From assembly GCA_937871985.1 (NCBI GenBank), contig CALMPB010000390.1:1-20257 (forward strand): a DNA stretch of 20,257 nt, in the 5' to 3' direction. Below, in pieces: positions 4,385 through 20,257 of the stretch (its first letter is position 1; each line of letters starts with the position of its first letter). The DNA comes from an uncultured Burkholderiaceae bacterium. GTDB lineage: Bacteria > Pseudomonadota > Gammaproteobacteria > Burkholderiales > Burkholderiaceae. The notes under the pieces are model-generated. The model was not told the origin of the DNA and did no database searches. It saw only the letters and a list, made by a program, of their open reading frames with translations. Made by a program: the position numbers and the translations under genes.

Positions 4385-4426
4385 CAATGTTCTACAGACG
4401 CCAGCAGAAGTCTGCAGAAAATAATC

Positions 4427-4444
4427 TGGAGCGGGAAACGAGAC
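4427..4444 (-). mobile_element. ICE attachment site (attR-type end): 3' end of tRNA-Gly(GCC)
   Basis: The minus strand reads GTCTCGTTTCCCGCTCCA, identical to the last 18 nt of bacterial tRNA-Gly(GCC): the T-arm 3' half, acceptor strand and CCA. From memory it is also the 18-bp direct-repeat core of ICEclc-family elements. The sequence upstream of it in tRNA sense is ICE DNA, not a tRNA body, so this is the copy left at the element end far from the integrase. Chromosomal genes lie on one side and the ICE core on the other, which supports the call independently. Confidence 0.88.
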
Positions 4445-5218
4445 ATTTACTAGGCGCGTAAGTCGTTGTTTCCCGAACACTTTCTTCGCCGAGGTGGCCA
4501 GCGAAGACCTCAATTGTAGCCTTGTTTTTCGTCCCCGGCAACAAGTTCGTCCAAAGAAATCCATCGACGTCCAAAGACGCACACTCCACGCACCAGACCC
4601 GCACCCCGCACATCGCCATCCGCGTGGACTCGAACTAGCGCCCCATATCCCGTTCTCTGCTTCTGCATCTTTACCGCGATGCCGACTAGGCAGCAGGCTT
4701 CCGATGTCGGGGCAGTTCGGATGCCACCGTGGAAAGGCGCGCACCGCGCATTGCGGTGCCGTCTGCGCAAGCCACGCCGGAAGAACGCACACCCTAGCCA
4801 TGGTGCGTCGGCGCGCGATTCTTTATGGATATATCAGGATGCCGGGATGAACATGACGGGAGCGGATTCGCTGCGTCCAGCTTGACGTTGGATGACGATT
4901 GCGATCCCCTTCGCACCCCTTGAGACCGTTGGCATATCAGGCCATACCCAGACGGTTTTGCAGGGGCCGCAACTTCTTACGACCCTGATAGCGTGAGCGT
5001 CACTGTCGAGCCTGCGTCTTGATGCTCGACCTTCTAGTCGATGAATTTTTACACATCGAGCACACGACGGCTACCAGTAGCGCCGACTGGTAAGAGGTAC
5101 TCAAGCCCAATGACGAAGCCGCCCTCTGGGCTCGCTTCCTGCACAGACAACACGCCGGCCATGAGGTCGGCGGCAAAGGAGTCGGCCATGTAGTTCTTCT
5201 CCTGGAAGGAGACGGAGC
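4445..5218. other. Terminal 774-nt ICE region without a convincing gene
   Basis: Open frames here are short, overlap one another and lack good starts, except for a possible 46-codon gene at 5049-5189 (minus). Visible structures are a 7-bp hairpin, GCACCGC at 4741-4747 with its complement at 4753-4759; a 7-bp hairpin, GTCGAGC at 5005-5011 with GCTCGAC at 5024-5030; and a 6-bp hairpin, TCGATG at 5038-5043 with CATCGA at 5054-5059. The sequence is less GC-rich and less codon-structured than its surroundings. It would hold integrase-arm or excision-factor sites if this end has any, and the promoter of the 5219 gene, but I cannot point to them. Confidence 0.6.
5049..5189 (-). CDS. Possible 46-residue protein, divergent from the bisR-like gene
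   Basis: The minus-strand frame gives a 46-residue protein starting MADSFAADLMAGVLSVQEA and ending SRRVLDV, which reads like a real polypeptide (balanced charge, amphipathic start). An AGGAG sequence (plus-strand 5199-5203) lies 9 nt before the ATG, a good ribosome-binding distance. Against it, the AGGAG is half of a small palindrome whose other half is the ribosome-binding site of the 5219 gene, and only 29 nt separate the two starts. A GTCGAGC hairpin (5005-5030) follows the stop and could be its transcript end. I recognise no family. It could equally be a chance frame or a remnant. Confidence 0.3.
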   Translation of the reverse strand: MADSFAADLMAGVLSVQEASPEGGFVIGLEYLLPVGATGSRRVLDV

Positions 5219-7223: not shown

Positions 7224-7455
7224 ACTTGCCCGAGGGCACAAACGGCTGCGCGCCCTGATCGAGTTCGCTGTCGGTGAAGGCTGGCACGTCAAGCGCACGC
7301 CGGGCGGCCACCTCAAATTCACCAAGGCAGGCTGTGCCGCGATCTACACCAGTTCGACGGCCAGCGACCACCGGGCCGCCCTCAACGCCCGTGCGCAGAT
7401 CCGCCGCGCCGAGCGCGAGGCACGATCCCAAGCGCTGGGAGGCAGCCATGGCTGA
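7207..7455 (+). CDS. shi: Small HicA-like protein between parA and parB (shi position)
   Basis: This 82-residue basic protein is wedged between parA (17-bp overlap at its start) and parB (8-bp overlap at its end). The stretch LRALIEFAVGEGWHVKRTPGGHLKFTKAG resembles the HicA mRNA-interferase fold, in which GW-x-x-x-R-x-x-GSH carries the catalytic His; here the motif is GGHLKF. The C-terminal helix (ALNARAQIRRAEREARSQ) is positively charged. No HicB partner follows. In ICEclc the gene at this place is shi, implicated with parA in stopping division of transfer-competent cells. The start MANAHELARGH is preceded by GGGAGG, which decides it over the upstream ATG at 7156. Function by homology is tentative; the HicA resemblance is by eye. 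Confidence 0.75.
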   Translation: MANAHELARGHKRLRALIEFAVGEGWHVKRTPGGHLKFTKAGCAAIYTSSTASDHRAALNARAQIRRAEREARSQALGGSHG

Positions 7456-9109
7456 GATCACCTCCCAGCAAATGGCCGGCAAGCTGCTCGCGGCAGGGTT
7501 CGAGCGCAGCGGCCCGGCCGCGTCGGCCTTGAGCGACCCGATCGCCGACACACCCATGGTCGTGACCCTGGACCAGTTACGCCCCTACGACCATGACCCG
7601 CGCAAGAAGCGCAATCCGGCCTATGAGGAAATCAAGGCATCCATCCGCGAGCGCGGCTTGGATGCGGCACCGGCCATCACCCGACGGCCTGGCGAGGACC
7701 ACTACATCATCCGCAACGGCGGCAACACGCGGCTGGCGATCCTGCGCGAACTGTGGTCGGAGACCAAGGACGAGCAGTTTTTCCGCATATCGTGCCTGTT
7801 CCGGCCGTGGCCCAGCCGCGGCGAAGTCGTCATGCTGACCGGCCACCTGGCCGAGAACGAACTGCGCGGCGGCCTCACCTTCATCGAGCGCGCCCTCGGC
7901 GTCGAGAAGGCGCGCGAGTTCTACGAGCAGGAAAGCGGCGCCGCCCTGAGCCAGTCCGAACTGGCCCGCCGCCTGGCCGCCGATGGCTTCCCGGTCCAGC
8001 AGTCGCACATCAGCCGCATGAACGACGCGGTGCGCTACCTTCTGCCCGCCATCCCCACTGTGCTCTATGGCGGCCTCGGCCGCCATCAGGTCGAACGCCT
8101 GTCGGTCATGCGCAAGGCCTGCATGCTCGCGTGGGAGCGCTACGCCAAGGGCCGCTCGCTGGTTCAGGACTTCGACGAGTTCTTTCAGGAAGTGCTGTCG
8201 CAATTCGACATCCAGGCCGACGAGTTCTCCGCGCAGCGCGTACAAGACGAGCTGATCGGCCAAATGTCCGAGCTGCTGGGCGTCGATTACGACGTGCTCG
8301 CTTTGGACATGACCGAATCCGAGAGCCGGCAGCGCGCCTTGGTCAGCGACCCGACGCCCCCCGCGACGACACCACCTGCATTGCCGGAGCCGGGGGCCAT
8401 CTCGCGCTCACCTGCCAACACCACGCCGCCCACCGCACGGCTTGCACCGGCGCCACCGCCTGCAGGCAGACCTGCGACGTCCCCCTCGGCGAGCGAGAGC
8501 GACGCGGATGCCAGCCAGCCGAGTACGGCCAGTCTGGCAGCGGATGACGACCTGCTTCAGCAACACATCGTCTCGCCGGCACCGACGACCGAACGGCTCC
8601 AATCCATCCAGCGCATGGTCGCCGACCAGTTGGGTGATGCCCTGCCGCCCGACTTCTCGGCGAATGTCTTGCAGTCCATCCCGGTGCAGGCCGGCGGGCT
8701 CTATCCAATCTCCGATGTCTGGTACATCGACCCGAGCCTGAACACGCCCGAGCGCTTGCGCATCCACATCGCGCAGTTCGCCCGGGAGATCGCGGACGAG
8801 GCCGACCTGGACGAGTGCATCGATGACCGTCCAGGCGGCATCGGCTTCGCCTGCCGTGCCTGCACCCAGACCCCGGCGCCGCTGGGCCGTGCCGTCCTGG
8901 CGCTACTGGCGTGTCTGGCCGGCCAGCAACCCGTCGACGTCGGCCTGGACAGCGGGCAAGTCGTCACCGACCTGCCGGCGCTGCTGCACGGACAGGGCGA
9001 CGCAACCCGGCGACTGAGCGACACCGCACTGGTCAAGCTGTTCCGGCTGCTGCGGCTGGCCCGGCGCCTGCTCGACCTCGAAGCCGGTGCTGCGGACGCT
9101 GGAACGTGA
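7448..9109 (+). CDS. parB: ParB family protein, PFGI-1 ICE type (BisD position)
   Basis: This 553-residue protein belongs to the ParB family of integrating conjugative elements. The N-terminal ParB/sulfiredoxin-like domain spans about 37-130: VVTLDQLRPYDHDPRKKRNPAYEEIKASIRERG, then HYIIRNGGNTRLAIL, with GGNTR replacing the usual GERR box. A helix-turn-helix lies near 166-200 (LSQSELARRLAADGFPVQQSHISRM). A Pro/Ala/Thr-rich linker spans about 298-375, and a separate C-terminal domain starts near LQSIQRMVADQLGDALPP. In ICEclc the equivalent gene encodes BisD, half of the BisDC master activator of transfer genes, so it may be a regulator rather than a partition protein. The ATG at 7448 overlaps the previous stop, and MAEITSQQMAGKLL is a family-like N-terminus. 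BisD identity is from synteny. Confidence 0.88.
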   Translation: MAEITSQQMAGKLLAAGFERSGPAASALSDPIADTPMVVTLDQLRPYDHDPRKKRNPAYEEIKASIRERGLDAAPAITRRPGEDHYIIRNGGNTRLAILRELWSETKDEQFFRISCLFRPWPSRGEVVMLTGHLAENELRGGLTFIERALGVEKAREFYEQESGAALSQSELARRLAADGFPVQQSHISRMNDAVRYLLPAIPTVLYGGLGRHQVERLSVMRKACMLAWERYAKGRSLVQDFDEFFQEVLSQFDIQADEFSAQRVQDELIGQMSELLGVDYDVLALDMTESESRQRALVSDPTPPATTPPALPEPGAISRSPANTTPPTARLAPAPPPAGRPATSPSASESDADASQPSTASLAADDDLLQQHIVSPAPTTERLQSIQRMVADQLGDALPPDFSANVLQSIPVQAGGLYPISDVWYIDPSLNTPERLRIHIAQFAREIADEADLDECIDDRPGGIGFACRACTQTPAPLGRAVLALLACLAGQQPVDVGLDSGQVVTDLPALLHGQGDATRRLSDTALVKLFRLLRLARRLLDLEAGAADAGT

Positions 9110-9124: not shown

Positions 9125-9685
9125 ATGTCCGCACCACACCCACTCAACCAAGCCGTCATCGCCCAGGCGCTCTATGACCTGCGCAATGGGCAACTGCGCC
9201 GCTGCAAGGCGATGGGTTTCAGCGAGGCCGAGCTGGATGCGCTCAAGCATCCCGCCATGGTGAGCGTGCTGGCCAACGCCAATGTCTCGTGGTGTTCCGT
9301 GTCCGTGAATCGCGAGGTGCTCCGGCGTCTGCTCTCGCAGGCGCAGGACGTGGAGAAGGAAATCGCGACCGTCGATCGCATGTTGCGCCTGGGGGCCAGC
9401 ACCGAGATGGTCAGTCGGTTCTATGGCCTGACCCACCAGGAGGTGGCGCTTCGCCGCGAAATCCTCGGTCTGCCCAAACGCAAGGGCCGTCATCCTGTAC
9501 TGGACGAGAAACAAGACACGGAACTATGGCGGCGGTGGAAGGCCGTGACCAGCAGCAGGAACGTCGATCTCGAAGACGAAACCTCCATCCTCGACGCTGC
9601 CATGGACCTGGCCGAAGGCATGTCGCTGCCTCTGTCGGTCGTCTGGGCCTCGATCAAAAGCTGGGTCGATCAAGGGTTGGGTTGA
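9125..9685 (+). CDS. bisC: DUF2857 family protein (BisC position)
   Basis: This 186-residue, largely helical protein is 15 nt after parB, with GGGAGG before its ATG. The core LRRLLSQAQDVEKEIATVDRMLRLGASTEMVSRFYGLTHQEVALRREILGLPKRKGRHPVLDEKQDTELWRRW contains a likely helix-turn-helix (ASTEMVSRFYGLTHQEVALRREILG) and is typical of DUF2857, a family regarded as distantly FlhC-like. In ICEclc the gene in this position is bisC, which with bisD forms the FlhDC-like activator of the integrase, inrR and other transfer promoters and feeds back on its own operon. Here the adjacent ParB-DUF2857 pair preserves that arrangement. Assignment is by family resemblance and synteny; no activity can be read from the sequence. 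Confidence 0.8.
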   Translation: MSAPHPLNQAVIAQALYDLRNGQLRRCKAMGFSEAELDALKHPAMVSVLANANVSWCSVSVNREVLRRLLSQAQDVEKEIATVDRMLRLGASTEMVSRFYGLTHQEVALRREILGLPKRKGRHPVLDEKQDTELWRRWKAVTSSRNVDLEDETSILDAAMDLAEGMSLPLSVVWASIKSWVDQGLG

Positions 9686-11126: not shown

Positions 11127-11243
11127 GCGCTACCGGCGTCCCCCACGCCCTGAACCGGGGACGGGCGGGTTTCGGTTTGTTGACTGACTGCCTTCCGCTT
11201 CCTGCCGAAGCTGGCCGCTCTTTTCCAACAACGAGCGGACACC

Positions 11244-13146: not shown

Positions 13147-13351
13147 CATCAACGTCCACCGGCTTCCACGCGCGCCCGAAAATCGCGGCTCCCGGCCCGC
13201 ACATCCCCGGCCGAACGCCACTCCCGTCCCCGCCATCCCATCCCGTGAAAGTGGTCGCCACCGCATGCGGCTTGTTTGCTGCTGCCCCTGGTGGTGCTCG
13301 GCATCCTCGACTCCAGCAACTCAATGAACCACGGAATTCGGATGGACGGAC

Positions 13352-15892: not shown

Positions 15893-17509
15893 ATGAACCC
15901 GCAACCTCGCACCCCACGCGGTGTGCCCCAGGCCGCGCCACTGCTGTACGGCAGCGTGTGCAGCGGCATCGAGGCCGTGAGCCTCGCCTGGCAACCCCTC
16001 GGCCTCGAAGCCGCGTGGTTCGCCGAAATCGAGCCGTTCCCGAGCGCCGTGCTCGCCCACCGTTACCCCCACGTGCCCAACCTGGGCGACATGACCGCGA
16101 TCGCCCGCCAGGCGCGCGCCGGCACCGTGCCGGCGCCCGACATCCTGGTCGGCGGCACGCCGTGCCAGTCGTTCAGCGTGGCCGGTGCGCGCCGTGGGCT
16201 GGATGACCCGCGCGGTGCCTTGACCCTTGCATATGTGGAGCTTGCCAATGCCATCGACCAAACCCGCCATCAAGACCGCCGCCCGGCGGCCACCCTCGTC
16301 TGGGAAAACGTCCCCGGCGTCCTCAACGACCGCAGCAATGCCTTCGGGCATTTCCTGGGCGCACTGGCCGGAGAAAGCCGTGCGCTCCAGCCGCCAGGGG
16401 ATCGGTGGGCGCACGCTGGTTGTGTGTCTGGACCCCGCCGCCGCATCGCCTGGCGGGTGCTCGACGCTCAATATTTCGGTGTCGCCCAACGCCGCAAGCG
16501 CGTGTTTCTTGTGGCAAGTGGTGGAGATGACCTCGATCCCGCCGAAGTACTTTTTGAGCGCGCAGGCCTGCTCGGGGATTCTTGTGCGGGCAGCGCGCCG
16601 TGGCAAGAAGCTGCCCGCGCTACTGGACCGGGTGCTGAAGCAGCAGGCGCATGCGCAGGACTTGCAGGATTCGCAGGACTGAAGCAGCCCTACAGCAAGG
16701 TCACCACGACGTTCGGGTTCAGCGGCGGCCCCGGCCCCGTCGATGTGGCCGCATGCCTGATGGCCGCAGGCCCCAAGCACGACATTCGCACCGAGACCTA
16801 CTTGGTGCAGTCGGTCGCAGGCAGCATCGCCCACACCCTCGACACCGCCAACAACGGCAAGGGCAGCAGCGAGGACGGCACCGGCAAGGGTGTTCCGATC
16901 ATCGCCTTCACCGCCCAGGGCAGCGGCGCGGATGCCACGCTCGACCTGACGCCGACGCTGCGCGCTGGCGGCCATCGCACCAGCCACGCGAACGCCGGCG
17001 TCGTGCCCGCCATCGCCTTCGCGCAGAACAACCGCGGCGAAGTGCGCTACGAGTCCGGCCATGGACAGGTGGCTTGCACTGTGCTGTCCAACGGCAAGCC
17101 GGGCTATGGGGTGCCGATGGTGGCCTGCGTGTCCCTGCGCGGCCGCGAGCAGGGTCTTGCCGCCGAGCTGGGCGGCAACGTATCGGCCGCACTGCGCACC
17201 AGCGGCGGAGGCGCGGACAAGCCCCATGTGCTGGCCCCCGACTTCGAGGCGCATTTCCGCTACGACTGGAACGACCCTGGCCCCGGCGACTGGTCGCATT
17301 GGCGGGTGCGGCGGCTGATGCCCGTGGAGTGCGAGCGGCTGCAAGGCATGCCCGACGACTACACGCTGATCCCGTACCGCGGCAAGCCCGCCGCGGACGC
17401 TCCCCGCTACAAATCGATCGGCAACTCCATGGCCGTCCCGTGCATGGCATGGCTGGGGCGGCGGCTCGTGCAGTGCCTGCACAAGACGGGCTCGACCGCT
17501 TCGGATTGA
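15893..17509 (+). CDS. DNA (cytosine-5-)-methyltransferase
   Basis: This 538-residue protein carries the C5-methyltransferase motifs in order: LLYGSVCSGIEAVSLAW (motif I, SAM binding), FAEIEPFPSAVLAHRYP (II), GDMTAI (III), DILVGGTPCQSFSVAG (IV, catalytic Cys91), LVWENVPGVL (VI, Glu138), QRRKRVFLV (VIII, 199-207), RRLMPVECERLQGMPDDYT (IX, from 473) and KSIGNSMAVPCMAWLG (X, from 507). Between VIII and IX about 265 residues, the target-recognition part, include four related segments with a period near 40. It methylates cytosine in a sequence that cannot be predicted here. No cognate endonuclease is adjacent, so it looks like an orphan methylase that may shield the element from host restriction. 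AGGAGA lies 8 nt before the ATG. Confidence 0.93.
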   Translation: MNPQPRTPRGVPQAAPLLYGSVCSGIEAVSLAWQPLGLEAAWFAEIEPFPSAVLAHRYPHVPNLGDMTAIARQARAGTVPAPDILVGGTPCQSFSVAGARRGLDDPRGALTLAYVELANAIDQTRHQDRRPAATLVWENVPGVLNDRSNAFGHFLGALAGESRALQPPGDRWAHAGCVSGPRRRIAWRVLDAQYFGVAQRRKRVFLVASGGDDLDPAEVLFERAGLLGDSCAGSAPWQEAARATGPGAEAAGACAGLAGFAGLKQPYSKVTTTFGFSGGPGPVDVAACLMAAGPKHDIRTETYLVQSVAGSIAHTLDTANNGKGSSEDGTGKGVPIIAFTAQGSGADATLDLTPTLRAGGHRTSHANAGVVPAIAFAQNNRGEVRYESGHGQVACTVLSNGKPGYGVPMVACVSLRGREQGLAAELGGNVSAALRTSGGGADKPHVLAPDFEAHFRYDWNDPGPGDWSHWRVRRLMPVECERLQGMPDDYTLIPYRGKPAADAPRYKSIGNSMAVPCMAWLGRRLVQCLHKTGSTASD

Positions 17510-17552
17510 TCGGCGACGCAGCCTGCGGGCCGCGCCATTCTCCCCCCTGCAT

Positions 17553-17713
17553 TGCCGACGTATCGGCAGCAGCCCGCAGCCAGGGTGTCAAGGCTGCCGC
17601 GGGTTCCCCCCGCGCCACCCGCCAGTTCGCCTCGGCATCTCACCGGCGAACGCTGCCCACCGGGGCATCGATGCCTCATTTCTCCAACCCACGGGATGGT
17701 CGCCACGTCCCGT
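17553..17713 (+). promoter_or_regulatory. Structured RNA leader A with predicted pseudoknot
   Basis: Upstream of the 17753 gene, stems follow in order: TGCCGA/TCGGCA (17553-17568); P1 GCAGCC 17576-17581 with GGCTGC 17592-17597; P2 CGCGGG 17598-17603 with CCCGCG 17609-17614; P3 GTTCGCC 17625-17631 with GGCGAAC 17645-17651. The P3 loop GGCATC (17634-17639) can pair with GATGCC (17670-17675), making an H-type pseudoknot. The P1 loop GGGTG (17583-17587) could pair with CACCC (17616-17620). A last hairpin, ACGGGA/TCCCGT, lies at 17691-17713. The same layout recurs in leader B with compensatory changes. It is probably a cis-acting RNA controlling the downstream gene. Confidence 0.65.
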
Positions 17714-17752
17714 CAGGGGCATGTCGCCACCCGGTCGATTTCAGGACTTCTC

Positions 17753-18310
17753 ATGGACAACATCACCAAGCAAGACCGCATCACGCTGAAGAACCTCAAG
17801 GTGGCAGATTTCGCCAGCGAGGAAACGATGTGCTTCAGCGCCACCGTCGTGTTCGACGGCACTCCCATCGCCGAGGCCCGCAACGACGGCCACGGCGGCT
17901 CGACGTTCCTGCGTGCGCTCAGCAGCAAGGTGGCACTGCTGGCGCAGGCCGAAGCCTTCGCCAAGGGCCTGCCGCCTGCGCCGCTCCACCTCGGCCAGGA
18001 GGGCGAAGACCCTCACTACATCGACATGACGCTCGACTTCCTGGTCGATGAACTGGCCGATGCCATGCACGCGGAACGCAAGGTGCGAGCCGCGTTCAAC
18101 CGCGACATCGGCAACAAGGTGCTTTTCATCAAGGACGGCAAATTGCTGTTCATCAAGGGCATCAAGCTCAAGGCCATCGCCGACCGCAAAGCGTACTTCG
18201 CTTCGCTGCGCACCCGGCAGGCCCAGCCCATCGTCATCCTCGCCGAGCTTGCGCCCGAGCAGGCATTCGACCTGTGGAAGCAGCATGTCCTGGGCGACAA
18301 GCCCGACTGA
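17753..18310 (+). CDS. Conserved ICE protein of unknown function (185 residues)
   Basis: I do not recognise a named family. The N-terminal stretch RITLKNLKVADFASEETMCFSATVVFDGTPIAEARNDGHGGSTFL resembles a small domain found at the start of many phage and plasmid proteins of unknown role, with a conserved SEET-x-C-F-x-A and N-x-GHGG pattern. The middle is acidic (GQEGEDPHYIDMTLDFLVDELADAMHAERK). The C-terminal half (IGNKVLFIKDGKLLFIKGIKLKAI, then QPIVILAELAPEQAFDLWKQHVLG) may form a mixed alpha/beta domain. No transmembrane segment or signal peptide is seen. The ATG at 17753 is chosen because AGGA lies about 7 nt upstream and MDNITKQDRITLKN gives a natural start. It follows structured leader A and ends at a strong terminator, so it forms its own transcription unit. 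Confidence 0.8.
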   Translation: MDNITKQDRITLKNLKVADFASEETMCFSATVVFDGTPIAEARNDGHGGSTFLRALSSKVALLAQAEAFAKGLPPAPLHLGQEGEDPHYIDMTLDFLVDELADAMHAERKVRAAFNRDIGNKVLFIKDGKLLFIKGIKLKAIADRKAYFASLRTRQAQPIVILAELAPEQAFDLWKQHVLGDKPD

Positions 18311-18335
18311 CCCAGCACCCTCGCACCCTCCTGAC

Positions 18336-18366
18336 AGCCCTGCACTCGTGCGGGGCTTTTTGTTTT
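18336..18366 (+). terminator. Rho-independent terminator
   Basis: AGCCCTGC (18336-18343) pairs with GCGGGGCT (18350-18357), with one G-T pair and the loop ACTCGT, followed by TTTTTGTTTT. It is 25 nt after the stop of the 18310 gene and ends that transcript, so the next gene needs its own promoter within 18367-18450. Confidence 0.88.
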
Positions 18367-18451
18367 CCCCGTGCCCATCAATCGGGGCTGGGCCGGATGC
18401 CGTTTTCCAAATGACGCGGCGCGGCCCGCGCATGAAGCTGCCCGCATGTTC

Positions 18452-18606
18452 GCTGATTCGTCAGCACATGCCAGCAGCCAGGGTTCCAGGCTGCCGCGGG
18501 TCTCTCCCGCGTTGCCCGCCAGTCCGCATCGCATCAATTCTGCGGACGCGCGTCCTCGTGACGCTGATGCTTTTCATCAACCGCGTGCGGGAGCTGTCAT
18601 CCCGTG
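18452..18606 (+). promoter_or_regulatory. Structured RNA leader B, paralogue of leader A
   Basis: The order of stems matches leader A: GCTGA-TTCG-TCAGC (18452-18465, a UUCG tetraloop); P1 GCAGCC 18474-18479 with GGCTGC 18489-18494; P2 CGCGGG 18495-18500 with CCCGCG 18506-18511; P3 GTCCGCA 18522-18528 with TGCGGAC 18541-18547. The P3 loop GCATCA (18531-18536) pairs with TGATGC (18565-18570). P1 and P2 are identical in sequence to A; the first stem, P3 and the pseudoknot differ in sequence but remain complementary. TCCC-GTGA-GGGA near 18600-18611 may match the last hairpin of A. Confidence 0.65.
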
Positions 18607-18642
18607 AGGGACGAGGCCCCGCTTTTTCCAAGGAGCCCGTCC

Positions 18643-18867
18643 ATGTCCCAGCAAGCCTCTTTCGGCCAAACCTTCGGGCAATTGGCCTCGACCTACTGCG
18701 GCAAGTTCCTGCCGCTCGAAGTCCTGCAAAGCGCCGCCGGCCACTACATCGGCACGCGCGATACCGAAGGTCCCGTTTCGCGGGAATCCCGCGAGTACTT
18801 CCGCAGCCATGCCGCGGCTCAACGTGCCCTCGAAAGAGGCGGCTGGTCCCAGCTCGCCATTCCCTGA
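18643..18867 (+). CDS. Small conserved ICE protein of unknown function (74 residues)
   Basis: The sequence GKFLPLEVLQSAAGHYIGTRDTEGPVSRESREYFRSHAAAQRALERGGWSQ follows a pattern seen in small proteins of phages and conjugative elements (AAG-x-YIGT...GP-x-SRES-x-EY...A-x-x-AL-x-x-G-x-W), but I know no assigned function. It looks like a compact single-domain protein without membrane segments or Cys motifs (one Cys). AAGGAG (18630-18635) lies 7 nt before the ATG at 18643, which decides it over the in-frame GTG at 18604. It is the first gene after leader B and the 18336 terminator, and is followed 21 nt later by the next gene, likely cotranscribed. Confidence 0.8.
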   Translation: MSQQASFGQTFGQLASTYCGKFLPLEVLQSAAGHYIGTRDTEGPVSRESREYFRSHAAAQRALERGGWSQLAIP

Positions 18868-18888
18868 TCCAACTGGAGGAATCACGTC

Positions 18889-19281
18889 ATGAACCAGCTA
18901 CTGCCGCGGGAAGTCGTCGATCAGATCATGCAGGAAGAACAGCATTTCGCTGCTGCGCCCCAAGCCTTTTTCGAGGCATGGAAGCGCGGCGTCGAGATCG
19001 CTGGCCCCGAGTGGTTCGGCGACGGCACCCGTGAAGGTCTGAACCAGGCCAAGAGCAAGTGGGATCTGCGTCCCAACATGCTGCGGCTCAACGATGCCCT
19101 CGGCGTCCTGAGCAGCGGCGAACGCATGTTCCTGTCCGCCATGGTCAGCTTCTACAACGCGCGCGAGGGCGGTGCCATGCTCAAGCGCTGCCACTTCCAC
19201 GGGCTGTCGGACTTCGACGGTCTCGATCTGCAACGCCGCAAGGTCATCGCCGACCTGCTGGTGAACTACAACGGCTGGTGA
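18889..19281 (+). CDS. ICE protein of unknown function (130 residues)
   Basis: No family is recognised. The protein is soluble, mostly helical and mildly acidic: LPREVVDQIMQEEQHFAAAPQAFFEAWKRGVEIAGPEWF, then LRPNMLRLNDALGVLSSGERMFLSAMVSFYNAREGGAMLKRCHFHGLSDFDGLDLQRRKVIADLLVNYNGW. The Cys-His-His triple in KRCHFHGL might bind a metal but is isolated. It follows the 74-residue gene by 21 nt with GGAGGAA before its ATG, so the two share a transcript. Its end is followed by a small GCCGG/CCGGC hairpin (19282-19294). Confidence 0.78.
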   Translation: MNQLLPREVVDQIMQEEQHFAAAPQAFFEAWKRGVEIAGPEWFGDGTREGLNQAKSKWDLRPNMLRLNDALGVLSSGERMFLSAMVSFYNAREGGAMLKRCHFHGLSDFDGLDLQRRKVIADLLVNYNGW

Positions 19282-19322
19282 GCCGGTCCCCGGCGCACCA
19301 CTGCTTTTCGTTCTCCCCCCGA

Positions 19323-19402
19323 GAGGGACATGCGCCCACAAGGCCATGTCCCTCAATTTCTTCTCCATCACCCTGCGGATGCCATCGTCCGCATGGGCTG
19401 GC
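19323..19402 (+). promoter_or_regulatory. Structured leader C with possible pseudoknot
   Basis: A perfect 10-bp hairpin, GAGGGACATG 19323-19332 with CATGTCCCTC 19345-19354 (12-nt loop), is followed by CCCTGCGGA 19371-19379 pairing with TCCGCA-T-GGG 19388-19397 (one bulged T). The second hairpin's loop GCCA (19381-19384) can pair with TGGC (19399-19402). The hairpin-plus-downstream topology is that of leaders A and B, but the sequence is unrelated and the pseudoknot is only 4 bp, so membership in the same class is tentative. Confidence 0.4.
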
Positions 19403-19429
19403 TCCGCTCATTTCTCGAAAGGGGCCACC

Positions 19430-20116
19430 ATGGCAAACCATTACTACGAAGGCACGGGCGTTCTCGTGCTGGAGCGCGTTACCCCCGTCATCAAGGCGCT
19501 GTTCGGCACCTTCGCGCTGGACGAAGACCATCCCGGCAACGGACAGGCCTACATCGCCCAGATCACCGAGACCAATGATCCGCAATGGGCGGATGTGCTG
19601 GATGGTCTGGAAGACTTGGCCACACAACTGGGCATCCCCATGCCCGATGACGAAGAGTTGTCGATTCCGCCTCTGCTCGAACGGCTGGCCGCGCACTTCG
19701 GTGCCGAGCAGGACGGGGAATTGGAGAACCTGATCGAACACCATCAGTTCGATGGCAGCTCCGACCTGGACGCCTTGCTTCTGATCGCCTCCTGCTTCGA
19801 TGACGGCCATCACCTGACCGCCATCCAGTTCGAGGGCTGCTGGCATTGCAGCAGGCCGAGGCTGTTCGAGTTCGGTGGCAATGGTTGCTATCTGAGCCGT
19901 GAGGTTCAGGTCTTCAGAACGTCTTCGCAGGCGCTCCAACTCGGCGAGCAACTGCGCAAGACCATCCTGGCCGCCGACATCGAAGAGGCCTCGGCATTGA
20001 TCGCGCTGGAGGCCGCTAACCTGCTCGCAGGCATCAACGACGAGCAGTTCCGCCTGGATGTGCGCCACCGCGTCGCCGAACGGCTGGCTCAGACGCCAAC
20101 GATCAGCGCCGCCTGA
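19430..20116 (+). CDS. Conserved ICE protein of unknown function (228 residues)
   Basis: I recognise this as a type often seen as a hypothetical protein in Pseudomonas and beta-proteobacterial ICEs, without assigned function. The N-terminal part, MANHYYEGTGVLVLERVTPVIKALFGTFALDEDHPGNGQAYIAQITETNDPQWADVLDGLEDLATQLGIPMPDDEE, is acidic; the middle (LIEHHQFDGSSDLDALLLIASCFDDGHHLTAIQFEGCWHCSRPRLFEFGGNGCYLSREVQVF) has a CWHC pair and an ordered beta-rich look; the end is helical (LGEQLRKTILAADIEEASALIALEAANLLAGI). Overall it is strongly acidic, which could fit a DNA-mimic or a protein-binding role, but that is speculation. The ATG at 19430 follows AAGGGG; the upstream in-frame ATG at 19346 lies inside leader C. 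Confidence 0.8.
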   Translation: MANHYYEGTGVLVLERVTPVIKALFGTFALDEDHPGNGQAYIAQITETNDPQWADVLDGLEDLATQLGIPMPDDEELSIPPLLERLAAHFGAEQDGELENLIEHHQFDGSSDLDALLLIASCFDDGHHLTAIQFEGCWHCSRPRLFEFGGNGCYLSREVQVFRTSSQALQLGEQLRKTILAADIEEASALIALEAANLLAGINDEQFRLDVRHRVAERLAQTPTISAA

Positions 20117-20137
20117 CGCATCTTTTCTCCTTTCAAC

Positions 20138-20190
20138 CCACCGGCTCCAATTCTCGGTGGCGGGAATTGGCTCCATTATTCAATCTGGAG
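20138..20190 (+). promoter_or_regulatory. Structured leader D: pseudoknot and a hairpin over the ribosome-binding site
   Basis: CCACCG (20138-20143) pairs with CGGTGG (20155-20160). The enclosed loop contains CCAATTC (20147-20153), which pairs with GAATTGG (20164-20170) downstream, giving an H-type pseudoknot of 6 and 7 bp. Immediately after it, CTCCA (20171-20175) pairs with TGGAG (20186-20190), masking the GGAG ribosome-binding site of the gene at 20199. The fold could regulate translation. Not comparable in sequence to leaders A-C. Confidence 0.45.
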
Positions 20191-20198
20191 AGTTCCCA

Positions 20199-20257
20199 TG
20201 TCCCAGAAACCCAATCCCTTTCTCCGCGGCTACTGGAATCTGAAAATCGTCCGCACG
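20199..20257 (+). CDS. Start of an unidentified protein, cut by the window edge
   Basis: Only the first 19-20 residues are present, beginning MSQKPNPFLRGYWN and continuing LKIVRT. GGAG lies 8 nt before the ATG, and the position directly after a structured leader matches the pattern of the preceding genes. Too short to assign a family. Confidence 0.6.

What the first reader, a model, noticed from the sequence alone, without database searches (positions are those of the whole stretch)
17553..18570. Two paralogous pseudoknotted RNA leaders with compensatory base changes, about 900 bp apart
Leaders A (17553-17675) and B (18452-18570) share about 65 nt of closely similar sequence and the same stem order. 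Where the sequence differs, pairing is kept: the first stem is TGCCGA/TCGGCA in A but GCTGA/TCAGC in B; P3 is GTTCGCC/GGCGAAC versus GTCCGCA/TGCGGAC; the P3 loop-to-downstream pairing is GGCATC/GATGCC versus GCATCA/TGATGC. Covariation in three helices including a pseudoknot is hard to get by chance and points to a conserved cis-regulatory RNA placed before different genes of one ICE. Known classes from conjugative elements that should be compared are STAXI (tandem simple pseudoknots, UNCG loops) and the DUF3577 motif; I cannot tell whether this is one of them or new.
Basis: partly seen in the sequence, partly recalled or inferred. Interest (0 to 1): 0.87.

Follow-up and report, generated by a model that had tools for sequence, protein, structure and literature searches.

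The report
Paired radC RNA leaders in ICE
Two similar folded RNA leaders in a mobile DNA element belong to a known but unexplained RNA family (radC), and comparison with a laboratory-studied element suggests that the family marks strongly induced genes of the element's transfer programme.

Summary
Leaders A and B are two copies of a known RNA class, radC RNA (Rfam RF01754; 68.1 and 83.6 bits, cut-off 40), not STAXI.
New here: radC RNAs occur as co-oriented sets inside ICEclc-type elements (165 hits, 83 sources). All 30 radC-RNA genomes checked carry DUF2857, the BisC family. Most leaders share a layout: terminator, bipartite DNA box at a fixed distance, -10-like element, RNA, gene. ICEclc itself has five radC RNAs, three before ORF88400, ORF84835 and ORF81655. 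The box also marks the published inrR and ORF67231 promoters, which have no radC RNA. The probes nearest behind those three leaders were the only ones of 21 induced 5-fold or more in published blots.
Most likely function: a cis-acting 5' leader acting after transcription starts, perhaps stabilising the mRNA. That mechanism is inferred, not shown.

The parts
17478..17511 (+). weak match to the bipartite promoter box, before leader A (10.7 bits; about 2 hits above 10 bits per 80 kb are expected by chance), overlapping the 3' end of the cytosine methyltransferase gene
   Evidence: PWM scan
17535..17541 (+). CCATTCT, -10-like element of leader A (inferred by alignment with the published PinR -10)
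   Evidence: inference
17547..17675 (+). leader A: radC RNA (Rfam match 17537-17674; the first ~10 bases of the Rfam match are probably promoter)
   Evidence: 68.1 bits, E 4.6e-11
17576..17620 (+). leader A first H-type pseudoknot: P2 17576-17581/17592-17597, P3 17598-17603/17609-17614, PK1 17583-17587/17616-17620
17625..17675 (+). leader A second H-type pseudoknot: S1 17625-17631/17645-17651, P5 17654-17658/17663-17667, PK2 17634-17639/17670-17675
17753..18310 (+). gene after leader A, 185 aa, no Pfam, NCBIfam or PADLOC match (the PADLOC scan used the ICEclc orthologue)
18336..18367 (+). intrinsic terminator between the gene of leader A and leader B (stem-loop 18336-18357, then a T-rich tail)
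   Evidence: other elements
18376..18409 (+). bipartite promoter box of leader B (37.1 bits with the matrix that it helped to train; 16.0 bits when its whole class was held out)
18433..18439 (+). TGAAGCT, -10-like element of leader B (inferred)
   Evidence: inference
18445..18570 (+). leader B: radC RNA (Rfam match 18435-18570)
   Evidence: 83.6 bits, E 1.4e-14
18474..18517 (+). leader B first H-type pseudoknot: P2 18474-18479/18489-18494, P3 18495-18500/18506-18511, PK1 18481-18484/18514-18517
18522..18570 (+). leader B second H-type pseudoknot: S1 18522-18528/18541-18547, P5 18550-18554/18560-18564, PK2 18531-18535/18566-18570
18643..18867 (+). gene after leader B, 74 aa, homologue of the ICEclc gene that I map to ORF88400; no family match
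11149..11182 (+). same promoter box before the inrR-like gene (20.7 bits); no radC RNA here
13244..13277 (+). weaker match to the box (13.4 bits) before the topoisomerase gene
9125..9685 (+). BisC-type DUF2857 protein (candidate activator subunit)
   Evidence: E 1.3e-63; BisC has a DUF2857 domain in PMC7423338 (passage)
7274..9109 (+). BisD-type ParB protein (TIGR03764); the start codon is uncertain
   Evidence: E 5.5e-121

Best explanation
Leaders A and B are two radC RNAs (RF01754) in an ICEclc-family element. SHOWN BY SEQUENCE: each is two successive H-type pseudoknots, each with a hairpin inserted (P2/PK1 around P3; S1/PK2 around P5), preceded by hairpin P1. B, like most B-, C- and D-type relatives, sits behind an intrinsic terminator and a bipartite box at a fixed distance; A has only a weak box match overlapping the end of the preceding gene. 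The box also lies before the inrR-like gene here and inrR in ICEclc. INFERRED: the box is the BisDC/InrR-dependent transfer-competence promoter element of ICEclc, with its -10 at the first bases of the Rfam model, so transcription starts at about the first base of P1. The mRNA then begins with a closed 5'-terminal structure. INFERRED MECHANISM (about 0.4 on its own): the leader acts in cis after initiation, most likely by protecting or boosting the mRNAs of a few accessory genes (A185, B74, C265, DUF3577, RadC) in transfer-competent cells.
For: Identity; no rival below E 0.2. Structure: 45 pairs, 91.0% of cells paired, covariation score 0.259 against at most 0.087 when slid; PK1 alone 0.459 against at most 0.211. 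PK1 and PK2 were not in the model that made the alignment. Own loop/linker pairs score 11.16 against 8.64 swapped, 0 of 2000. RNA rather than DNA: 29 G-U against 7 A-C cells. Box: found without position information at -59/-60 in all 23 non-redundant upstream regions used; score 444 against 194-209 in 8 shuffles with equal effort. Held-out classes: B found at one place in 9 of 9, D in 7 of 7. In ICEclc 7 hits above 16 bits against 0.1 expected. Three of them (ORF88400, ORF84835, ORF81655) are homologues of the training set; inrR and ORF67231 are not, and PMC9286271 lists both among the promoters dependent on BisDC and InrR. G438 is ICEclc's host: with the scale set on ORF88400, stops fall at 84835 and 81655, equal to the ORF names. 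Published PinR -35 TTGACT, -10 TGTCGATCCT and start T lie at the box end, +21 to +30 and +37; radC leaders have about ccATsCT at the same place. ORF81655 5' end about 250 nt before its start codon; the radC model starts 235 nt before it. In PMC2892462 Table 2 probes ORF81655, ORF84835 and ORF87986 (second gene of the ORF88400 unit) rose 17-, 75- and 20-fold to 72 h, none of the other 18 as much as 5-fold; inrR, with the box but no radC RNA, did not rise. PMC9286271 suggests post-transcriptional control for intB13 and ORF81655. Association: 30 of 30 radC-RNA genomes checked have DUF2857.
Against: Published start sites conflict: the text of PMC2892462 puts the inrR start 25 nt before the ORF95213 start codon, its Table 1 gives 96,204, and the S3 legend of PMC9286271 gives 152 bp, which could place the box inside the transcript. 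The letters of the published 27-bp motif were not seen. My matrix finds intB13 only weakly (12.0 bits), alpA and traI not at all, and its hit near ORF58432 lies downstream of that radC RNA. With class C265 held out, the box is found weakly there (-0.5 to 8.3 bits). RadC-class leaders (3 of 3, plus L069) have no box, and in ICEclc that RNA overlaps the upstream ORF by coordinates, so a 5'-terminal cap cannot be their whole function. UR84835 and UR89247 fragments gave no subpopulation promoter activity in PMC9286271. Probes further down the same transcripts (ORF83350, ORF73029, ORF68987) did not rise, which fits attenuation as well as stability; the inrR transcript, flat in the blot, is up on the array (log2 5.6), so the two methods differ. 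ORF88400 and ORF81655 reporters lit among the fewest cells (2.30% and 1.47%). G191 has a close BisC and no radC RNA found.
Confidence: 0.7

Rival explanations
1. Ligand- or protein-controlled translational switch: the pseudoknots sense a metabolite or bind an ICE protein and open or close the Shine-Dalgarno region, with the start codon 70-90 nt downstream.
For: In folds the SD is masked in 3 of 3 RadC-class reps (0.0 unpaired), lower than shuffled in C265 (10 reps, 0.17-0.29 against a mean of 0.34) and masked in 4 of 9 DUF3577 reps (0-0.02); the other 5 score 0.38-0.39. Weinberg 2010 rates radC switch status as '?'. Loop letters such as TTCAA are conserved in much of the class.
Against: No masking in A185 (mean 0.54 unpaired against 0.45 shuffled, 5 reps) or B74 (0.37 against 0.35, 17 reps), so it is not a class-wide expression platform. 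No alternative pairing between the RNA and the SD region was looked for systematically.
Confidence: 0.2
2. Processive antitermination or transcription attenuation: the RNA modifies or stalls RNA polymerase so that it passes, or stops at, terminators in the array.
For: Terminators precede 13 of 19 B, 12 of 12 C and 9 of 13 D reps; copies are co-oriented in arrays; ICEclc is thought to have a 14.5 kb mRNA starting at ORF81655, and signals decline 5' to 3'.
Against: Most B, C and D units have their own box, and ICEclc transcripts of these units were mapped as separate. No conserved terminator between RNA and gene was noted by eye; this was not scanned class-wide.
Confidence: 0.15
3. The element works as structured single-stranded DNA (for instance a promoter or initiation site used during transfer) rather than as RNA.
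For: ICE location beside ssb, topoisomerase and methyltransferase genes; the 2010 authors considered this for STAXI.
Against: G-U outnumber A-C cells 29 to 7 on the gene strand (rows are related); the reported 5' end of the ORF81655 mRNA would include the region; a duplex box precedes most copies.
Confidence: 0.04
4. STAXI, or the DUF3577 motif named by the first reader.
For: STAXI is also repeated pseudoknots near ssb, topoisomerase and integrase genes.
Against: No STAXI match to E 10 while radC matches at 1e-15 and 3.4e-12.
Confidence: 0.01

Closest known systems
radC RNA motif, Rfam RF01754 (Weinberg et al. 2010, PMC2864571)
   Same: Both leaders match the whole model above the curated cut-off; before genes on mobile DNA, nearly always in Proteobacteria; one copy in ICEclc is before a RadC gene (PF04002).
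   Different: In the model structure printed neither pseudoknot appears (such models cannot hold pseudoknots, so this does not show that Rfam lacks them) and a 3-bp helix is drawn in the S1/PK2 part; the first ~10 model positions look like a promoter -10. The published drawing was not seen (additional files not held). PMC7657543 (passage and part of section 12) says that the Rfam and ZWD radC structures differ and that covarying pairs were missing.
STAXI, RF01728
   Same: Alike in architecture: tandem pseudoknots at mobile-element genes for DNA handling.
   Different: No model match; STAXI repeats one pseudoknot, radC has two different ones, each with an inserted hairpin.
ICEclc transfer-competence regulon (PMC9286271, PMC7423338, PMC2892462)
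   Same: Homologous genes in the same order, box and BisC/BisD-type regulators in the window.
   Different: Word searches in the main texts of four ICEclc papers found no mention of radC.

Membership tests
radC RNA (RF01754) | covariance-model score above the gathering cut-off (40 bits) | tested here: met
   68.1 and 83.6 bits, positions 1-149 of 149
radC RNA (RF01754) | P1, P2 and P3 helices kept with covariation | tested here: met
radC RNA (RF01754) | upstream of genes for DNA-handling proteins (recalled from the family's description) | tested here: inconclusive
   the two genes in the window have no family match; other copies precede DUF3577 and RadC genes
radC RNA (RF01754) | function as a cis-regulator | not testable with these tools
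   the 2010 table rates cis-regulation 'y', probably
STAXI (RF01728) | match to the STAXI covariance model | tested here: not met
   no match to E 10
   no such match, but it was not checked that Rfam holds this motif; copy D does precede a DUF3577 gene and is radC RNA
ICEclc family of ICEs | BisC (DUF2857) and BisD (ParB) genes | tested here: met
ICEclc family of ICEs | order topB, methyltransferase, ORF88400, ORF87986 homologues | tested here: met
   my arithmetic: gene ends in the window and ICEclc ORF numbers agree within about 15 bases once the scale is set at the methyltransferase end
ICEclc 27-bp transfer-competence promoter motif | letters of the published motif (S3 Fig) | not testable with these tools
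   supplement not held; only the legend was seen
ICEclc 27-bp transfer-competence promoter motif | presence at the 8 published promoters | tested here: inconclusive
   strong at inrR, 88400, 81655, 67231; weak at int; none at alpA and traI; misplaced for 58432

The most novel reading that the evidence does not exclude
radC RNA is a post-transcriptional arm of the transfer-competence programme of ICEclc-type elements: in most copies a tandem-pseudoknot structure starting at nucleotide +1 that acts as a 5'-terminal stabiliser of a small set of mRNAs, so that a few transfer-competent, non-growing cells make these gene products (possibly for use in the recipient) in large amounts.
Probability: 0.35. 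Interest if true: 0.75.

Novelty: new member of a known kind. Interest (0 to 1): 0.5.

Why it matters
radC RNA was described in 2010; two full-text searches of the library found no paper that names it beyond that one and a structure-prediction study. Placing it in ICEclc, a model element with reporters, published RNA-seq and deletion strains in P. putida, makes an orphan RNA class directly testable and offers a concrete candidate cause for the mismatch between transcript and reporter levels that PMC9286271 left open.

Tried and rejected
STAXI: no match to E 10. Leader peptide from the ATG in P1: open frames from 3 aa to the 200-aa limit of the script, no ATG there in A185 leaders other than the L029 type; not conserved. 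General SD masking: holds in some gene classes only. FlhC (PF05280) as the activator: only a hit on another contig (C11) in G001 and none in G303; BisC has DUF2857 instead. Ordinary sigma-70 promoter: none near the leaders in 17300-20257. Phage origin: window 17500-18700 has no match in 50,697 phage records; a strict pattern hit no viral contig, a looser one 51, none scoring above 20.5 bits. Obligate partner of DUF3577: 20 of 369 class genomes have DUF3577, radC RNA found in 2. Class sampling for radC RNA: 2 of 369; 1 of 41 relatives, G001 again.

By record title L067, a Phycisphaerae MAG, is the one host of the 69 outside Proteobacteria, perhaps misbinned. Of 165 hits 108 are unique, and one contig was fetched twice (L002 and L005; L104). 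A3 holds the 97 hits with E up to 1e-15 in 63 sources, so C265-class and other weak hits are outside the pair counts; the cut rows L045 and L013 were dropped (L045 alone), none. In one search four distinct loop/linker pairs have no PK1: three mis-parsed by my script, one (L016) without a stem of 3; they count against PK1. Two of the five measures do not beat shuffles (pairs with a change on both sides 263/500; pair types 500/500), nor does pair types (497/500). Outer PK1 pairs 54-94 and 58-90 are unpaired in 22 of 44 and 18 of 80 rows with letters. The shuffles had fewer restarts than the real run; one search repeats them at equal effort.
Full report
WHAT IS THERE. An Rfam scan of the window gives three matches; two are radC RNA, RF01754, at 18435-18570 (83.6 bits, E 1.4e-14) and 17537-17674 (68.1 bits, E 4.6e-11), both complete and above the curated 40 bits. 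A lax scan of 17300-18800 gives no other family below E 0.2 and no STAXI to E 10. The class comes from Weinberg et al. 2010, PMC2864571 (passages and section 4 seen), whose table rates it certainly an RNA, probably cis-regulatory, riboswitch status open. The additional files with its drawing are not held. A full-text search for four names including 'radC RNA' and RF01754 found only that paper and PMC7657543; 'radC motif' found none.

RELATIVES. 69 of 117 genome loci and 0 of 51 viral loci hold one. In every source with more than one copy all copies point the same way, at recurring spacings (A-B 894-901, B-C mostly 1.9-3.0 kb, C-D mostly 1.1-1.6 kb). Of 25 genomes that I chose among those behind the 69 loci, 25 have 2 to 15 copies. 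By downstream gene: B74 46, D3577 45, C265 36, A185 27, RadC 3, other 8.

STRUCTURE. On alignment A3 (97 hits, 81 distinct rows) 45 pairs including two pseudoknots give 91.0% paired cells; the covariation score is 0.259 against 0.131 in shuffles and at most 0.087 when slid, while the number of pair types does not beat shuffles. The rows were fitted to R1, which contained P1, P2, P3, S1 and P5 but neither pseudoknot, so PK1 and PK2 are not favoured by construction. PK1 (P2 loop with the linker after P3) has 86.4% paired cells, 4 of 5 pairs with changes on both sides, and a score of 0.459 against 0.187 in shuffles and at most 0.211 slid. With 34 distinct loop/linker combinations, own partners score 11.16 and swapped partners 8.64 (sd 0.47), 0 of 2000 swaps reaching it; related rows are not independent, so this is no exact probability. 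It is real as complementarity but nearly silent on covariation. G-U cells outnumber A-C cells 29 to 7, as expected for RNA of the gene strand; this is only indicative, again because rows are related. The whole is two H-type pseudoknots in a row, each with a hairpin in its last loop. The C265 subclass has a short hairpin in place of S1/PK2 (seen by eye) and was not counted.

PROMOTER. A motif search without position information on 23 of 31 non-redundant upstream regions (B, C and D classes and two from L029; other A185, RadC and 'other' regions left out) found one bipartite motif, about AAtsCGGg-N12-TGCCGaTTnCc, starting 59 or 60 bases before the RNA model in all 23; score 444 against 194-209 in eight shuffled sets run with equal effort. 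Trained without B it finds B at one place in 9 of 9 (8.4-17.7 bits), without D it finds D in 7 of 7 (2.4-24.7), without C it finds C at one place but weakly in 5 of 5 (-0.5 to 8.3). In a pass over 27 regions of all classes, 21 exceed 10 bits, two reach 8-9, and four (three RadC, one RadC-like) have none. Terminators stand before 13 of 19 B, 12 of 12 C, 9 of 13 D, 1 of 3 A, 3 of 8 other and 0 of 3 RadC reps, against about 1-8% in shuffles; in the window one lies at 18336-18357. The box also occurs without a radC RNA, at window 11149-11182 before the inrR-like gene and weakly at 13244-13277 before the topoisomerase gene.

LINK TO ICEclc. The window holds AlpA, ParA, a BisD-type ParB and a DUF2857 protein; PMC7423338 (passages) describes BisC as having a DUF2857 domain and BisD a ParB domain. 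Searching the genus of one host found G438, with two identical sets of five radC RNAs 342.7 kb apart on one contig of 6,162,905 bases. Fixing the scale on the ORF88400 homologue puts the stops of the next two radC-led genes at exactly 84835 and 81655, the names of ICEclc ORFs; the RadC gene falls at 58416, against ORF58432. So ICEclc has five radC RNAs, at 89717-89580, 88819-88684, 85832-85681, 82807-82662 and 59140-58993; R1 finds all five. The box matrix gives 7 hits above 16 bits in 80 kb against 0.1 expected: ORF88400, ORF84835, ORF81655, ORF67231, inrR, and two others at 74336 and 58320; intB13 scores 12.0, alpA and traI nothing. The three radC-led hits are homologues of the training set (the ORF88400 box is identical to the window's), so the independent part is ORF67231 and inrR; both stay among the top eight with a matrix trained on C and D alone. 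PMC9286271 (passages) reports a common 27-bp motif in eight of nine bimodal promoters, and lists inrR, 88400, 81655, 67231, traI and intB13 as late promoters depending on BisDC and InrR. Its S3 Fig was not held, so the letters are not compared.

START SITE. PMC2892462 (sections 5-8 read) gives for the inrR transcript a start T 25 nt before the ORF95213 start codon, -10 TGTCGATCCT and -35 TTGACT. All three are found in the sequence, the T 37 bases after the box, the -10 at 21-30 bases and the -35 at its end. radC leaders have about ccATsCT at the place of that -10, which is positions -1 to 5 of the Rfam model. By analogy their transcripts start at about model position 12, the first bases of P1. 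Against this, Table 1 of the same paper lists 96,204 for that transcript and the S3 legend of PMC9286271 a distance of 152 bp; 96,204 lies 151 bases from the box's downstream edge, so the published data are in conflict. For ORF81655 a weak primer-extension product about 250 nt upstream of the start codon was reported; the radC model starts 235 nt upstream.

WHAT IT DOES. Published blots (Table 2): from exponential phase to 72 h of stationary phase ORF81655 rose from 10.2 to 177, ORF84835 from 0.4 to 29.8, ORF87986 (second gene of the ORF88400 unit) from 5 to 100. None of the other 18 probes rose as much as 5-fold (next ORF100952, 1.4 to 6.7, and ORF75419, 7.5 to 28), including ORF83350, ORF73029 and ORF68987 further down the same transcripts, ORF53587 at the end of the transcript that I give to the RadC copy, and inrR, which has the box but no radC RNA. 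Array ratios were highest for 85934-88400 (log2 6.5) and 83350-84835 (6.3), but 66625-67231 (5.8) and 91884-95213 (5.6), without radC RNA, are close. The authors of PMC9286271 note that reads upstream of ORF81655 were highest of all while its reporter equalled Pint, and suggest post-transcriptional regulation. I therefore favour a leader that raises or preserves the 5' part of these mRNAs. The same decline along the transcript would fit attenuation, and SD masking in RadC, part of DUF3577 and more weakly C265 leaders would fit a translational switch, so the mechanism stays open. Deleting ORF88400-84388 or ORF81655-75419 did not reduce transfer to an isogenic recipient; the controlled genes are accessory in that assay.

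DISTRIBUTION. 30 of 30 radC-RNA genomes examined carry DUF2857. In a class sample of 369, 29 have DUF2857 over the cut-off and 2 have radC RNA; these two are among the three with a close BisC (above 210 bits), the third being G191, which has none by the family search. For the 18 of 20 DUF3577 genomes without a radC RNA hit, the best box score in the regions scanned is 8.0 bits; in a few of those loci my script's gene start is doubtful (L238, L241, L248, L249).

VERDICT. A known RNA class correctly spotted by eye; new, as far as I could search, are its place in the ICEclc-type programme, the covarying PK1 (whether the published drawing has it was not seen), and the likely promoter at the start of the Rfam model.

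Noticed in passing
window 17500-17746; L256 4001-4247: This stretch, with the end of the methyltransferase gene and leader A but not its gene, is found at 98.4% identity on many enterobacterial plasmids (133 of 72,556 plasmid records match the query, 130 of them at 95-99%; also 20 of 5,426 E. coli genomes). In the one viewed it lies between sul1/qacE and an endonuclease III-domain gene, near rmtC, and holds a radC RNA (92.3 bits): a leader carried off without its gene.
   Followed up: partly
L257 1049-1193, 2982-3127, 3894-4038: An Enterobacter ludwigii conjugative plasmid (NZ_CP116348.1) has three radC RNAs, before an ATP-binding protein and two hypothetical proteins that match the window's A185-B74 region.
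   Followed up: partly
window 4425-4506, - strand: Complete match to the Rfam family sX8, a proteobacterial sRNA (92.6 bits), before the first ICE-type genes that I identified.
   Followed up: no
L029 oriented 4614; L096 7197: radC RNAs before further gene types: an ATPase-like protein by eye (L029) and an unclassified protein (L096).
   Followed up: no
G438 C1, ICEclc 74336 and 58320: Promoter-box hits above 16 bits in ICEclc at 74336 and 58320 that are not at the starts of published transfer-competence promoters as I map them.
   Followed up: no
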